From Janibacter alkaliphilus (GTDB lineage: Bacteria > Actinomycetota > Actinomycetes > Actinomycetales > Dermatophilaceae): a DNA stretch of 64,000 nucleotides. Positions 37,401 through 43,022 of the stretch are shown here, piece by piece. How positions within the stretch are numbered: position 1 is the first letter of the stretch; each line of letters starts with the position of its first letter. The notes beneath the pieces were generated by a model. It was given only the letters and a program-made list of their open reading frames with translations. It was not told the DNA's origin and did not search any database. The DNA lies in assembly GCF_013408565.1 (NCBI RefSeq), contig NZ_JACBZX010000001.1:1426001-1490000 (forward strand), in the 5' to 3' direction. Made by a program: the position numbers and the translations under genes.

Positions 37401-38135
37401 TCAGCGCTCGGTGCGCACCACCGCGGTCTTGGCGACGATGTCGCCCAGGGTCCGCCGGTCGGCGTCGAAGAGCATCCAGATCCAGTCGACGATGCCCAGC
37501 ATGAGCACCAGCAGCTCGCGCAGCACCATGGCACCGAGGGTCGGCCGCCCGCCGTCCGCGGCGTTGACCACCTTCAGCCCGGTGACCCGGCGACCGATGC
37601 TCTGCCCGGTGCGCGAGACCCGCCAGATCCGGTTCCAGAACCACACGACGTAGATGAGCAGCGAGCTGACGGCGATGAGCACGATGCCGGTGATCCACAT
37701 CGCGCTGCTGCCGGTGCCGGGGACCTCGCAGTCGGTCATGCTGCCGTAGGAGCACGGCTCGTAGTCGGGCAGGCCGACGACGAAGAGGACCGCCCCGACC
37801 GTGAGGAGGATCGCCGTGGGGACGCTGGCGAGGACCTGGTCGATGAGCCGCGGCAGCACCCGGTCGCTGAAGTCGGTGACCGGCCCGTAGCGCTGCTCCA
37901 CCCACGCCCGCGAGCCTGGGCGGTTCGGGTCGTCGCCGGGGGAGGGGACGACGTAGGGGTTGTAGCCGTAGGGCCCGGGGTAGCCGTGAGCGGCGCCCGG
38001 GTGCTGCGGCGACGGGTGCGCGGGCGCGGGCTCCGGCGGGCGACGACCCTGCGGCGCGGGCGTGCCCTGCGGCGGTCCCTGGGGCGGCGGCCACTGCGGG
38101 GGCGGGCCCTCCGGGGGACCAGGGGTGCTGCTCAT
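37401..38135 (-). CDS. RDD-family membrane protein with Pro-rich N-terminus
   Basis: 244 residues. Residues 1-75 are Pro/Gln/Gly rich; the RDD domain (about 85-240) begins with RVLPRLIDQVLASV, whose Arg and Asp give the family name, and contains QSIGRRVTGLKVV and RRTLGDIVAKTAVV. Three or four membrane segments. RDD proteins are poorly defined; some are Na+/H+ antiporters. The ATG overlaps the DUF4032 stop, so it is the third gene of the ABC-ATPase/DUF4032/RDD series. Confidence 0.85.
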   Translation of the reverse strand: MSSTPGPPEGPPPQWPPPQGPPQGTPAPQGRRPPEPAPAHPSPQHPGAAHGYPGPYGYNPYVVPSPGDDPNRPGSRAWVEQRYGPVTDFSDRVLPRLIDQVLASVPTAILLTVGAVLFVVGLPDYEPCSYGSMTDCEVPGTGSSAMWITGIVLIAVSSLLIYVVWFWNRIWRVSRTGQSIGRRVTGLKVVNAADGGRPTLGAMVLRELLVLMLGIVDWIWMLFDADRRTLGDIVAKTAVVRTER

Positions 38136-39382
38136 GCGCGTCCTTCCTCGGTGTCCGGCGGCAGGTAGCGGGCGTCGGTGCCCAGCACCGCGGCCTCGTC
38201 CGGCTTCTCCGGCAGCACGTCACGGACGTACTCGGTGATGGCGTCCTCGATGGGCACATCGTGCCCCAGCCGCTCGGCCATGTACCACCGGTGCTCGAGG
38301 ATCTCGTGGAAGACCTCGGCCGGCTCCAGCTTGGCGCGCATCCCCGGCGGGATCGCCCGGCTCATCGGCTCGTAGACCTGACGCAGCCAGTCCCCGGCGA
38401 CGATCGCCTCGTCCTCGCCCTGACGGTCGGTGGCCGCCCGGTAGGCGTCGAGGTCGTTGAGCAGCCGCCGCGCCTGGTTCTCCTCGACGTCCAGCCCGGT
38501 GATCCGCATCAGCCGCCGGCTGTGGTGCCCGGCCTCGACGACCTTCGGCTGGATCCGCACCGAGGTGCCGTCGAGGTCGGTGGAGATCTCCAGCTCGTCG
38601 ACGTCGAAGCCCAGCGCGTTCAGCCGGCGGATCCGCTCGTCCACCCGCCAGCGCTCGCCGGCCTCGAACCACTCGTCGCCGGTCAGCTCGTCCCACAGGC
38701 TGCGGTAGCGGGTGATGATCTCGTGCGCCGTGGTGATCGGGTCGACGTCCTCGGGCAGCACGCCGGCGGCGGCCAGGTCCATGAACTCGCCGGCGATGTT
38801 GACCTGGGCGATGTCCAGGTCGTGCTCGCGCTGGCCGTCGCTGAGGCTGTCGTGCAGCTCACCGGTCTCGGCGTCGACGAGGTAGGCGGAGTAGGAGCCG
38901 GCGTCGCGGCGGAAGAGGACGTTGCTCAGCGAGACGTCGCCCCACCAGAAGCCGATGAGGTGCAGCCGCACCAGCAGCACCGCCAGGGCGTCGATGACCC
39001 GGGTGGCCGTGTCGGCCCGCAGATGCTGGCTGACCACCACCCGGTAGGGCAGCGAGAACTGCAGGTGCCGGGTGACCAGGCAGGCGTCCAGCGGCTCGCC
39101 GTCGGCGTCGGTGCGCCCGGTGACCACCCCGATCGGGTGCACGCACGGCTCCCCGAGACGCTCCAGGGCGCGCAGCATCCGGTACTCCGAGCGGGCCAGC
39201 TCGGCCTTGATCTCCTTGACCGCGACCACCCCGCCGGAGAGCTTGGCGAAGCGGACCACGTGCCGGGAGATGCCGCGGGGCAGGGCGGCCAGCCGCTCCT
39301 CGGGCCAGTCCTCGAGCGGCACCGACCACGGCAGGTCGAGCAGGGCGGAGTCGGGTCCGGCCGAGGAGATCTGCAAGGACAT
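38132..39382 (-). CDS. DUF4032 protein with kinase-like fold
   Basis: 416 residues. The N-terminal half looks like an atypical kinase: GGVVAVKEIK with Lys56 (beta-3 lysine), GFWWGDVSLSNVLF with Asp149 and Asn154 (catalytic loop D-x4-N) and YLVDAET with Asp170 (DFG-like). The C-terminal half (about 270-400) is the DUF4032-specific region. The substrate is unknown; similar folds phosphorylate lipopolysaccharide sugars or aminoglycosides. It is conserved in actinobacteria and sits between the degenerate ABC ATPase and the RDD protein. Confidence 0.75.
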   Translation of the reverse strand: MSLQISSAGPDSALLDLPWSVPLEDWPEERLAALPRGISRHVVRFAKLSGGVVAVKEIKAELARSEYRMLRALERLGEPCVHPIGVVTGRTDADGEPLDACLVTRHLQFSLPYRVVVSQHLRADTATRVIDALAVLLVRLHLIGFWWGDVSLSNVLFRRDAGSYSAYLVDAETGELHDSLSDGQREHDLDIAQVNIAGEFMDLAAAGVLPEDVDPITTAHEIITRYRSLWDELTGDEWFEAGERWRVDERIRRLNALGFDVDELEISTDLDGTSVRIQPKVVEAGHHSRRLMRITGLDVEENQARRLLNDLDAYRAATDRQGEDEAIVAGDWLRQVYEPMSRAIPPGMRAKLEPAEVFHEILEHRWYMAERLGHDVPIEDAITEYVRDVLPEKPDEAAVLGTDARYLPPDTEEGRA

Positions 39383-39398
39383 GCCCCCCAGTGTGCCC

Positions 39399-40115
39399 TC
39401 AGACCCCCAGGTAGGCGGCGACGAAGGGGTTCGCCGGCGCCTCCCGCAGCCGCTGCGGGGTGTCGCACTGCTGCAGCACCCCGTCGCGCAGCACCGCGAC
39501 CCGGTCGCCGATCGCCAGCGCCTCGTCCGGCTGGCTGGTGGCGTACAGCGTGGTCACGCCCAGCCGGCGCTGCAGCGCGGAGAGCTGGTCGCGGGTCGCC
39601 GCGCGCACGGCTGGGTCCAGGGTCACCAGCGGGTCGTCCATGATGAAGACCTGCGGGGCGCGCACGATCGCCCGGCCCATCGCCACCCGGTGGCGCAGGT
39701 CCCGGGTCAGCTCGGCGGGGGTCTGGTCGAGCTGGTCGGTCAGGTCCAGCACCTCGGCGGCCTCGGCGACCCGCCGGGCCACCTCGTCGTCGTCGATCCC
39801 GGCCACCCGCATGGCGAAGCCGAGGTTGTCGCCGACCGTGAGGTGCGGGTAGAGCGCGTAGCTCTGCAGCACCATCGCCACGTCCCGCTCCCGCGAGGAG
39901 AGCCGGGTGACGTCCTGGCCGTCGAGCAGCACCCGGCCGGCGTCGACCTCCTCGAGCCCGGCGAGCAGCCGCAGCGTGGTGGAGCGGCCGCACCCGGCCG
40001 GACCGGCCAGCACGAGCAGCTCGCCGTCGGCGACCTCGAGGTGCAGGTCGCCCACGGCCGGCACGTCGAGGCCGGGGTAGGTCAGGGTCACCCCGTCGAA
40101 GGTGACTGCTGCCAT
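39399..40115 (-). CDS. Degenerate MalK/UgpC-like ABC ATPase domain protein
   Basis: 238 residues from ATG 40115. The overall fold is a sugar-ABC-importer ATPase (YPGLDVPAVGDLHLEV, MVLQSYALYPHLTVGDNLGF, GDRVAVLRDG), but catalytic motifs are altered: Walker A GPAGCGRST has Arg44 for the lysine, the signature LSGGQ is LTRDL (136-140), Walker B has Asp161 for the catalytic glutamate, and the H-loop histidine is Ser194. The Q-loop Gln84 remains. It also lacks the roughly 120-residue C-terminal regulatory domain. No permease gene is near. It is probably an ATP-binding or scaffold protein rather than a transporter motor (inference). Confidence 0.8.
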   Translation of the reverse strand: MAAVTFDGVTLTYPGLDVPAVGDLHLEVADGELLVLAGPAGCGRSTTLRLLAGLEEVDAGRVLLDGQDVTRLSSRERDVAMVLQSYALYPHLTVGDNLGFAMRVAGIDDDEVARRVAEAAEVLDLTDQLDQTPAELTRDLRHRVAMGRAIVRAPQVFIMDDPLVTLDPAVRAATRDQLSALQRRLGVTTLYATSQPDEALAIGDRVAVLRDGVLQQCDTPQRLREAPANPFVAAYLGV

Positions 40116-40268: not shown

Positions 40269-41051
40269 TCAGCCGGACCCGGCCCGCAGCTCCCGCAGCC
40301 GGCGCAGCACCGCCGGCACGTCCTCGGTGGTGGCCACCCGGTGGCCGGCCGCGGTCTCGCCGTCGCCGACCTTGATCCCCAGGTCGTCCGGTCCGAGCAC
40401 GGCGAAGGCGTGCTCGTCGGTGACGTCGTCGCCCAGGTAGACGGTGGCGGCGACCCCGAGCTCGTCGGTCAGCCGCCGCAGCGCGCTGCCCTTGTCGGCC
40501 GGGACGACGGTGAGCTCGAAGATCCCCTTGCCGGCCATGAGCCGCACCCCGTCGCGGGCCGCGGCTCGCTCCGCGATCTCCTGGGCCTGCTGGGCTCCCA
40601 CCTCGTCCTGCCCGCGGGAGTGGACCACCACGGCAGAGGGCTTGTGCTCCAGCCGGATCGGGCGGCCGGCCTCGGCCACCGCCGCCTCGACCTCGTCGGT
40701 GAGCGCCGCCAGCAGCTGCTGCTGGTCGTCGGTGAGCCCGAAGCCGTCGTCGCGGCTGCTCTGCGCCCCGTGGCTGCCGATCCGGGTGACCGCGGCGCCA
40801 CGCTCGCCCTGCAGCCCGGTGAGCGTGCTGAGGGTCTCCAGGTCGCGCCCCGAGACCACCGCCACCCAGGTGCCGGGGCGCTCGCCGAGGGCCAGCAGGT
40901 CCTCGACGGTGCCCGCCTGCGGGCGGGCGTCCAGCGGGTCGAGGACGAAGGGGGCCAGCACCCCGTCGAAGTCGGTGGCCACGAGCAGCGTCTCCGCGGC
41001 GGCGACCCTGGCCAGGGCGCGCTCCAGCTCGGCCGCCGGGGTGGCGCTCAC
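40269..41051 (-). CDS. otsB: Trehalose-6-phosphate phosphatase
   Basis: 260 residues from GTG 41051, overlapping the otsA stop by GTGA. HAD motifs: DFDGVLAPF (residues about 27-35, nucleophile Asp), VVSGRD, the Lys in ADKGSAL and YLGDDVTDEHAF. The Val in DFDGV replaces the commoner Thr. It converts trehalose-6-phosphate from OtsA into trehalose, a compatible solute and stress protectant. Confidence 0.9.
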   Translation of the reverse strand: MSATPAAELERALARVAAAETLLVATDFDGVLAPFVLDPLDARPQAGTVEDLLALGERPGTWVAVVSGRDLETLSTLTGLQGERGAAVTRIGSHGAQSSRDDGFGLTDDQQQLLAALTDEVEAAVAEAGRPIRLEHKPSAVVVHSRGQDEVGAQQAQEIAERAAARDGVRLMAGKGIFELTVVPADKGSALRRLTDELGVAATVYLGDDVTDEHAFAVLGPDDLGIKVGDGETAAGHRVATTEDVPAVLRRLRELRAGSG

Positions 41052-42517
41052 CGCTCTCCACCCGTCGTCGCGGCGGTCCCGGCGTCGCTGGCCGTCGCGG
41101 TGCCCGGCCGCTGCGGGGCCTGCTCGAGGTTGGTGAGGAAGCGGTCCGCCCAGCGCTGCACGTCGTGGTCGGCCACCCGACGCCGCAGCGCGCGCATGTA
41201 GCGGCGGCGGCTGCTCTCGTCGGTGCGCACCGCCCGGACGATCGTCTGCTTCAGCCCCTCGATGTCGTGCGGGTTGCACACGAACGCCTGGTGCAGCTCG
41301 TGGTAGGCGCCGGTGAACTCGGAGAGCACCAGCGCGCCGCCGTCGTCGTGACGGCAGGTGACGTACTCCTTGGCGACGAGGTTCATCCCGTCGCGCAGCG
41401 GGGTGACCAGCATGACGTCGGCGGCCTGGAAGAGCGCGGCCATCTCCTCCCGCGGGTAGGACTGGTGCAGGTAGTGCACCGCCGGCGAGCCGATCGCCGA
41501 GTGGGTGCCGTTGATCCGCCCGACGGTGCGCTCCACCTCGGTGCGCAGCTCCTTGTACGCCTCGACCCGCTCCCGGCTGGGCGTGGCCACCTGGACGAAG
41601 GTGACGTCCGGCGGGCTGATGACGCCGTCCTCGAGCAGCTCCTCGTAGGCCTTGAGCCGGTGCCGGATGCCCTTGGTGTAGTCCAGCCGGTCGACGCCGA
41701 GCAGGACCACCCCGGGGTCGCCGAGGGAGTGCCGGATCTCCTCGGCCCGCTCCTGCACGGCCGGCTCCTTGGCCAGCCTCTCCAGGCCGCGGTAGTCGAT
41801 GCTGATCGGCACCGCGCTGGCCCGCACCACCCGCTGCCCGGCCTCGTCGGCGACGGTGACGGTCTCCCCCTTCGTCGTGGCGCCGATGAGCCGGCGGCAG
41901 GCCCGCACGAAGTTCTGCGCGTCGGCCACCCGCTGGAAGCCGAGGTAGTCCGCCCCGAGCAGCCCCTCGAGGATCTGGGCGCGCCAGGGCAGCTGGGCGA
42001 AGAGCTCCACCGGGGGGAAGGGGATGTGGTCGAACCAGCCGATCCGCACGTCCGGCCGCAGCCGGCGCACCAGGGCGGGGACGAGCTGCAGCTGATAGTC
42101 GTGCACCCACACCTTGGCGCCCGGCGCGGCGACCTCGCAGATCTGCTCGGCGAAGCGCTGGTTCACCCGCTCGTAGGCCTGCCACCAGGCCCGGTGGAAG
42201 CGCGCCGGGACGATGACGTCGTGGTAGATCGGCCACAGCGTGTCGTTGCTGAAGCCCTCGTAGTAGAGCTGGATCTCCTCGGCGGACAGGGCCACCGGGT
42301 GCAGCCACATGCCCTTGTCGGCGAAGGGCGCCGGCGCCTCGCCGGGCTCGCCGGCCCAGCCGACCCAGGCCCCCTCGCGGTCGCTCATCACCGAGTCCAT
42401 GGCGGTGACCAGGCCCCCGGGGGAGCGGCGCCAGACGCTGCCCTCGGGGGTGCTCACCCGGTCGACCGGGAGGCGGTTGGCGGCGATGACCAGGTCGTAG
42501 GTGCGACGGGTGGTCAC
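41048..42517 (-). CDS. otsA: Trehalose-6-phosphate synthase
   Basis: 489 residues, GT20 family. ANRLPV (residues 10-15), HDYQLQLVPALVRRLRPD, GWFDHIPFPP and DRLDYTKGI mark the UDP/GDP-glucose and glucose-6-phosphate sites; the C-terminal donor region includes LRDGMNLVAKEYV. GTG 42517 is chosen for AAGGAG 8 nt upstream and because further upstream sequence overlaps the CBS promoter. The gene is translationally coupled to otsB. Confidence 0.93.
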   Translation of the reverse strand: MTTRRTYDLVIAANRLPVDRVSTPEGSVWRRSPGGLVTAMDSVMSDREGAWVGWAGEPGEAPAPFADKGMWLHPVALSAEEIQLYYEGFSNDTLWPIYHDVIVPARFHRAWWQAYERVNQRFAEQICEVAAPGAKVWVHDYQLQLVPALVRRLRPDVRIGWFDHIPFPPVELFAQLPWRAQILEGLLGADYLGFQRVADAQNFVRACRRLIGATTKGETVTVADEAGQRVVRASAVPISIDYRGLERLAKEPAVQERAEEIRHSLGDPGVVLLGVDRLDYTKGIRHRLKAYEELLEDGVISPPDVTFVQVATPSRERVEAYKELRTEVERTVGRINGTHSAIGSPAVHYLHQSYPREEMAALFQAADVMLVTPLRDGMNLVAKEYVTCRHDDGGALVLSEFTGAYHELHQAFVCNPHDIEGLKQTIVRAVRTDESSRRRYMRALRRRVADHDVQRWADRFLTNLEQAPQRPGTATASDAGTAATTGGER

Positions 42518-42581
42518 GGGTGGGCTCCTTGTCGTGCGGGTGATCCCCACGATAGGCCTACCGCGGCACCCGCTTCGGGCG

Positions 42582-42587
42582 TACCGT
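42582..42587 (+). promoter_or_regulatory. Candidate leaderless -10 box (TACCGT)
   Basis: TACCGT ends 6 nt before ATG 42594; no Shine-Dalgarno sequence is visible. Confidence 0.5.
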
Positions 42588-42593
42588 CCTGTC

Positions 42594-43022
42594 ATGAAGA
42601 TCTCGGACGTGCTGCGCAGCAAGGGCTCGGACGTCGTCACCGTCCGGCCAGAGACCAGCGTCGGTGAGCTGCTCGGGGTGCTCGCCGACCACGGCATCGG
42701 AGCGGTGGTGGTCACCGGTGAGCAGGACGAGGTGGTCGGCATCGTCTCCGAGCGGGACATCGTGCGGCGGCTGCACGCCCAGGGGCGGGACGTCGTCGAC
42801 GGCCCGGTCTCGGGGATCATGACCGCCGAGGTGCAGACCTGCGTCGCCGCGGACGACCTGACCAGCGTCGAGGCGACGATGACCGAGCGGCGGATCCGTC
42901 ATCTGCCGGTGGTGCACGACGGCTCGCTGGTGGCCATCGTCAGCATCGGCGACGTGGTCAAGCACCGGATGCGCGACCTCACCGCCGAGCGGGACCAGCT
43001 CGAGGCCTACATCCACCAGTGA
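42594..43022 (+). CDS. Two-CBS-domain protein
   Basis: 142 residues with tandem CBS domains at about 8-62 and 73-130 (VVGIVSERDIVRRLH and LVAIVSIGDVVKHRM are the adenosine-ligand edges). CBS pairs bind AMP, ATP, SAM or NAD and usually regulate other proteins. It resembles stand-alone hypoxia or stress CBS proteins. Followed by a 10-bp GC hairpin and then the Ser/Thr kinase gene; divergent from otsA. Confidence 0.88.
   Translation: MKISDVLRSKGSDVVTVRPETSVGELLGVLADHGIGAVVVTGEQDEVVGIVSERDIVRRLHAQGRDVVDGPVSGIMTAEVQTCVAADDLTSVEATMTERRIRHLPVVHDGSLVAIVSIGDVVKHRMRDLTAERDQLEAYIHQ

What the first reader, a model, noticed from the sequence alone, without database searches (positions are those of the whole stretch)
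38132..40115. MalK-like ATPase with all four catalytic motifs degenerate, next to an atypical kinase (DUF4032)
In the 238-residue ABC protein the Walker A lysine is Arg44, LSGGQ is LTRDL, the Walker B glutamate is Asp161 and the H-loop histidine is Ser194, while the Q-loop and overall fold are intact. The C-terminal regulatory domain and any permease are absent. The DUF4032 neighbour (17 bp downstream) keeps a kinase-like Lys56/Asp149/Asn154/Asp170 set, and an RDD membrane protein is co-translated with it. This looks like a non-transport signalling or scaffold module rather than a broken transporter, because the frame is open and long.
Basis: partly seen in the sequence, partly recalled or inferred. 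Interest (0 to 1): 0.75.

Follow-up and report, generated by a model that had tools for sequence, protein, structure and literature searches.

The report
Dead sugar-importer ATPase beside atypical kinase
A sugar-importer motor protein in a Janibacter bacterium has lost all its ATP-burning residues and its tail, yet its sequence still changes like that of a working protein, and similar crippled copies sit beside the same kinase-like gene in two other lineages, which hints at a second, non-transport job.

Summary
In detail: a 238-residue ABC domain (P0001, 39399-40115, minus) has R44, LTRDL, D161 and S194 and lacks the C-terminal domain. It lies 16 bp upstream of DUF4032, which overlaps an RDD gene. 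Its kin are CUT1 sugar-importer ATPases (MsiK/UgpC type). Of 113 distinct DUF4032 loci, 66 carry an intact full-length copy upstream, 5 a degenerate one, 5 fragments, 35 none, 2 unreadable. Three results disagree. (1) Neutral drift fits poorly: omega=1 is rejected on its branch, and its replacements are more conservative than in any simulation. (2) Janibacter massiliensis has a second truncated degenerate copy in the same slot. (3) Dermatophilus-type genomes have a full-length degenerate copy there (same Glu-to-Asp and His-to-Ser) under strong purifying selection (dN/dS 0.088; ABC domain 0.035). The five genomes with degenerate copies show no intact MsiK and only 3-4 SBP_bac_1 matches. Best reading: catalysis became dispensable once client importers were lost, and the fold persisted for a non-catalytic role, perhaps with the Bud32/WaaP-like DUF4032 kinase. 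That partnership is inference; a fading relic is the main rival.

The parts
39399..40115 (-). Degenerate, truncated MsiK/UgpC-type ABC nucleotide-binding domain (P0001, 238 aa)
39984..39986 (-). Codon 44, Walker A lysine position, Arg
   Evidence: window coordinates worked out from the residue number
39864..39866 (-). Codon 84, Q-loop glutamine, kept
39696..39710 (-). Codons 136-140, LTRDL in place of LSGGQ
39633..39635 (-). Codon 161, Asp in place of the Walker B glutamate
39534..39536 (-). Codon 194, Ser in place of the H-loop histidine
39383..39398 (-). 16-bp gap to DUF4032; in two intact sister-genus loci (L125, L127) full-length MsiK ends close before DUF4032, in a third (L126) about 110 bp before
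38132..39382 (-). DUF4032 protein (416 aa): Bud32/WaaP-like kinase fold, residues about 1-234, plus helical DUF4032 domain
37401..38135 (-). RDD membrane protein, 4-bp overlap with DUF4032
40269..41051 (-). Trehalose-phosphatase gene (otsB-like), next gene upstream
   Evidence: PF02358 73.6 bits, cut-off 27
41048..42820 (-). Glycosyltransferase family 20 gene (otsA-like, trehalose-phosphate synthase by recalled function); true start may lie further in
   Evidence: PF00982 478.5 bits from residue 110 on

Best explanation
P0001 is a stand-alone pseudo-ATPase. Shown: it has the fold of a CUT1 sugar-importer ATPase (MsiK/UgpC/MsmX type), and many relatives hold an intact, full-length gene of this type in the same slot beside DUF4032. 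Shown: the Walker A lysine, signature, Walker B glutamate and H-loop histidine are all altered and the C-terminal domain is gone, but its sequence has evolved under protein-level constraint, weaker than in intact MsiK. Inferred: it cannot hydrolyse ATP at a useful rate. Inferred: once the genome lost the importers that borrowed this ATPase, catalysis and the C-terminal domain became dispensable, while the folded domain kept a second, non-catalytic task. Inferred further: that task is tied to the neighbouring DUF4032 Bud32/WaaP-like kinase, as partner, regulator or scaffold. The A-loop Tyr, Q84 and D160 remain, so weak nucleotide binding without turnover is possible.
Against: No direct evidence links the ABC domain to DUF4032. 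Of the 15 other Janibacter genomes, 14 (1,500 bp read upstream) have DUF4032 and no ABC gene there; the 15th was read for only 500 bp. So DUF4032 does not need it. Simple pairwise dN/dS against J. melonis is 0.60, much weaker constraint than the branch model gives; synonymous sites are saturated, and a long constrained phase followed by a shorter relaxed one would fit the codon model too. Neutral runs with 100 replacements stayed free of stops in 6.5-32% of cases, so the open frame alone is weak; with only 60 replacements GC2 at most 0.456 is common (up to 50%), though GC3 at least 0.979 was never reached with 60 or 80. Motif residues were not lost significantly more than other invariant residues. 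The exact motif set is private to this species. The L157 branch test was uninformative (2dlnL 0.3). The Dermatophilus congolensis entry P0239 departs from L159 after residue 299 and is named 'partial'. Low SBP counts also occur where no copy is left (3-8 in 14 other Janibacter genomes) and in G198 (4), so they explain loss of catalysis, not retention of the domain.
Confidence: 0.45

Rival explanations
1. A fading relic: an msiK gene released from selection after its client importers were lost, on its way to the absence already seen in the rest of Janibacter, with no present function.
For: Intact copies in relatives; 14 other Janibacter genomes without it at the locus; fragments at the same place in G197 and G198 and a split frame in G137; few SBP matches in genomes with degenerate copies; raised omega (0.19 vs 0.063) and pairwise 0.60; private motif changes.
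Against: The wrecks found in the family look different: broken pieces, 64-89% identical to intact MsiK and canonical at most motif positions that survive. Here the frame is whole, replacements are conservative and third-position GC is high. The Dermatophilus-type degenerate copy is under strong purifying selection.
Confidence: 0.38
2. Non-catalytic half of an asymmetric importer: P0001 pairs with an intact ATPase (such as the paralogue at 1753252 of the genome) under a CUT1 permease, as in exporters with a degenerate nucleotide-binding site.
For: Such sites are established, including Pdr5 with all four motifs changed and ABCG5/G8 with Walker A Lys to Arg (PMC7756269, passages). In the G058/G059 copy the Q-loop/permease groove is fully kept (18 of 18 invariant residues, p=0.002) and in J. 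massiliensis 16 of 18 (p=0.03).
Against: In the window copy the groove is not preferentially kept (12 of 18, p=1.0). No permease gene among its immediate neighbours. The 15 other Janibacter genomes keep the 44-47% paralogue, and 14 of them have no P0001-like gene at the locus.
Confidence: 0.1
3. One ancient DUF4032-linked pseudo-ATPase family, spread by descent or transfer, rather than separate losses of catalysis (a question of origin that can hold together with the best explanation).
For: Window and J. massiliensis share 12 identical replacements among 31 MsiK-invariant sites changed in both (17.4 such sites expected if independent). AU test rejects the window copy grouping with the sister genus's MsiK (p 0.002) and does not reject window + J. 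massiliensis (0.20) or these + Dermatophilus types (0.25).
Against: Very long branches and shared GC pressure can pull such rows together, and the AU test shares that pull; the DUF4032 tree sets the window species with Janibacter and J. massiliensis elsewhere.
Confidence: 0.2

Closest known systems
MsiK / MsmX / UgpC CUT1 sugar-importer ATPases
   Same: Fold; 47-48% identity to solved SugC, best structural match MsmX; same genomic slot as the UgpC-named copy of J. melonis (P0266)
   Different: All four catalytic motifs altered, C-terminal domain missing, below the UgpC curated cut-off (263.7 vs 432 bits; intact J. melonis copy 475.7)
Degenerate nucleotide-binding sites of heterodimeric ABC transporters (Pdr5, ABCG5/G8, TAP)
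   Same: Altered Walker A, signature, Walker B and H-loop; Glu to Asp and Lys to Arg are known there (PMC7756269, passages)
   Different: Those are parts of full transporters with a partner site; this is a lone soluble domain without a neighbouring permease gene
Bud32/PRPK, WaaP and RIO atypical kinases (for DUF4032)
   Same: Fold of residues about 1-234; kinase-like K56/E66/D149/N154/D170 invariant
   Different: C-terminal DUF4032 domain; low identity (13-18%); activity untested

Membership tests
CUT1 importer ATPase (MsiK/UgpC/MalK) | ABC_tran domain | tested here: met
   PF00005 87.4 bits, cut-off 25
CUT1 importer ATPase (MsiK/UgpC/MalK) | Walker A Lys, LSGGQ, Walker B Glu, H-loop His | tested here: not met
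   R44, LTRDL, D161, S194
CUT1 importer ATPase (MsiK/UgpC/MalK) | C-terminal OB/TOBE regulatory domain | tested here: not met
   protein ends at 238; no OB/TOBE match versus intact P0266
CUT1 importer ATPase (MsiK/UgpC/MalK) | NCBIfam UgpC curated score | tested here: not met
   263.7 vs 432
CUT1 importer ATPase (MsiK/UgpC/MalK) | ATP hydrolysis and sharing by importers | not testable with these tools
   needs biochemistry
Degenerate half of a heterodimeric ABC transporter | encoded with a permease and an intact partner | tested here: not met
   neighbours are trehalose-phosphatase, glycosyltransferase 20, DUF4032 and RDD genes; a partner encoded elsewhere is not excluded
Pseudogene | frame disruption or neutral evolution | tested here: not met
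   open frame, no gap; omega=1 rejected; simulations. Recent loss of function is not excluded
DUF4032 (P0002) | PF13224 | tested here: met
   245.6 bits, cut-off 23.8
Bud32/WaaP-like kinase (P0002) | kinase fold and Lys/Asp/Asn/Asp set | tested here: met
Bud32/WaaP-like kinase (P0002) | phosphotransfer or ATPase activity | not testable with these tools
   needs biochemistry

The most novel reading that the evidence does not exclude
DUF4032-linked MsiK-type domains form a recurrent class of bacterial pseudo-ATPases: after importers are lost, catalysis is shed and the C-terminal domain is lost or diverges, but the ABC fold stays on as a non-catalytic subunit of a Bud32-like kinase system, exposing a second function that intact MsiK also has.
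Probability: 0.3. Interest if true: 0.8.

Novelty: new variant of a known kind. Interest (0 to 1): 0.55.

Why it matters
Degenerate ABC sites are known as halves of transporters. A lone soluble ABC domain that has lost its catalytic residues yet shows protein-level constraint beside one kinase-like gene, with kindred cases in two further lineages, would point to a transport-independent role of shared sugar-import ATPases. A full-text search of the held library for the word DUF4032 found no paper, so it would also give that family a first testable partner.

Tried and rejected
Rejected: sequencing error (a copy differing by one residue exists). Rejected as evidence: 'open and long frame'. Tried: preferential loss of motif residues over other invariant residues, not significant (window 17/32 vs 91/131 kept, p=0.10; J. 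massiliensis 22/32 vs 77/120, p=0.68). Tried: gene trees of the ABC domain, unsettled because of long branches. The codon fit for J. massiliensis ran to the branch-length bound, so its omega value is not used, only the rejection of 1. L157 branch test uninformative. The pairwise L125/L127 figure compares unaligned sequences and is not used. In one search, L146 and L155 are counted as fragments but may be cut by a locus or contig end; many 'none' loci were read for only about 1,500 bp upstream, so a copy one gene further away would be missed. SBP counts are matches at E 0.001, not curated genes; one of G060's four lies under the family cut-off. Paper searches: DUF4032 (0 papers); a narrow five-term search for catalytically inactive, moonlighting ABC ATPases; broader searches on degenerate or pseudo-ATPase ABC proteins, MsiK, MsmX and msiK loss were seen as listings only. 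PMC7658222 and PMC7756269 were read as passages, no paper in full.

Full report
What is there. On the minus strand, in order: a glycosyltransferase-20 gene (otsA-like, 42820-41048), a trehalose-phosphatase gene (otsB-like, 41051-40269), the ABC domain P0001 (40115-39399), DUF4032 (39382-38132) and RDD (38135-37401). P0001 has R44, LTRDL, D161 and S194 where intact relatives have K, LSGGQ, E and H; A-loop Y13, Q84 and D160 are kept. It ends where relatives enter the OB/TOBE domain. Its model is a complete ABC domain (pLDDT 89.6), closest to B. subtilis MsmX (TM 0.95), an ATPase shared by several importers; such exchange has been reported for the CUT1 subfamily (PMC7658222, passages).

Relatives. 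DUF4032 is near-universal in the family: 180 of 186 genomes at E 1e-100. I read the slot upstream of DUF4032 in 113 distinct loci: 66 intact ABC copies (all full-length), 5 degenerate, 5 fragments, 35 none, 2 with too little sequence. The DUF4032 tree places the window species as the first branch of its genus, next to the J. melonis group; the three genomes read from that group have intact, full-length MsiK between otsA/otsB and DUF4032. Among the other 15 genomes of the window's genus, 14 read for 1,500 bp have no ABC gene there; one could be read for 500 bp only. Six of those 15 carry a 57-58% relative elsewhere, and all 15 a 44-47% paralogue.

Other degenerate copies. J. massiliensis (L084) has a 224-residue domain, GRST / LGGDE / DEPLSSLS / TDDL, just before DUF4032. 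Three genomes of one genus have full-length degenerate copies: G058/G059 GKST / L(S or N)HGA / MDDPL / ATSSP, and G060 LTGGE / NLEP / ATTDQ. The G058 protein equals a Dermatophilus congolensis database protein over its first 299 residues, so I call these genomes Dermatophilus-type; the name is by inference. In the four types compared (window, J. massiliensis, G058, G060) the H-loop histidine and the intact LSGGQ are lost in all four, the Walker A lysine and the Walker B glutamate in two each.

Is it drifting? Branch codon model on the DUF4032 topology: omega 0.19 (window) against 0.063; omega=1 rejected, 2dlnL 38.1; J. massiliensis 56.2; two intact controls 94.1 and 63.5. Weaknesses: synonymous saturation, and a branch average cannot exclude a late relaxed phase; a simple pairwise count gives 0.60. 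Independent checks: 237 residues align without a gap. In 200 neutral runs per setting with 100 replacements, GC3 at least 0.979 arose in 0-0.5% and GC2 at most 0.456 in 0-4.5%, at opposite ends of the GC settings; with 60 or 80 replacements the GC3 value never arose, while the GC2 value did (up to 50%). Runs with 100 replacements were free of stops in 6.5-32%. Mean BLOSUM of the replacements is 0.29 against -0.62 to -0.67, reached in 0 of 300 runs per setting. Between G058 and G059 the degenerate copy shows 9 nonsynonymous and 32 synonymous changes (dN/dS 0.088, p 1.9e-12 against neutral); ABC domain 2 and 18 (0.035); C-terminal part 7 and 14 (0.157); DUF4032 0.061.

Why catalysis could go. 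SBP_bac_1 matches number 4 (window), 3 (J. massiliensis), and 4, 4, 4 (G058-G060), against 7-17 in nine genomes with an intact copy at the locus (G109, G110, G111, G016, G047, G107, G164, G022, G199; motifs read); the other 23 genomes tested have 3-10. G060 is 75% complete, so its count is a lower bound. In one search no degenerate-copy genome has another MsiK above 55% identity, while intact ones are at 66-100%. Three of the window genome's four SBP matches lie within about 2.5 kb of an ABC ATPase gene (coordinates; the fourth is not listed). Low counts also occur where no copy is left, so they explain loss of catalysis, not retention.

One origin or several? The AU test rejects P0001 with the J. 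melonis MsiK (p 0.002) and does not reject P0001 with J. massiliensis (0.20) or with these and the Dermatophilus types (0.25); 12 identical changes are shared with J. massiliensis. Long branches and GC pressure could cause this, so I leave it open.

Verdict. 'Simply broken' and 'conserved module with this motif set' both fit poorly. The best-supported reading is a pseudo-ATPase descended from a shared sugar-import ATPase, still constrained as a protein, with a possible but unproven link to DUF4032.

Noticed in passing
genome G132 (same family): 100% complete by its record, 5 contigs, yet no DUF4032 match at E 0.001 and no MsiK-type match at the thresholds used (1e-50, 1e-70); loss of both coincides.
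   Followed up: partly
L121, L122, L123 upstream of DUF4032: Fragmentary or frame-split msiK in G197, G198 and G137, 64-89% identical to intact MsiK; the G137 case may be a sequencing error.
   Followed up: partly
L158 and L159, C-terminal part of the degenerate copy: The C-terminal part is less constrained (dN/dS 0.157) than the ABC domain (0.035), and the L158 protein no longer matches OB/TOBE models.
   Followed up: partly
L100-L105, L107, L114 (Streptomyces), L089-L091, L118 (Kribbella): DUF4032 without an ABC gene in the 2.6 kb upstream that was searched, so the linkage is not universal.
   Followed up: no
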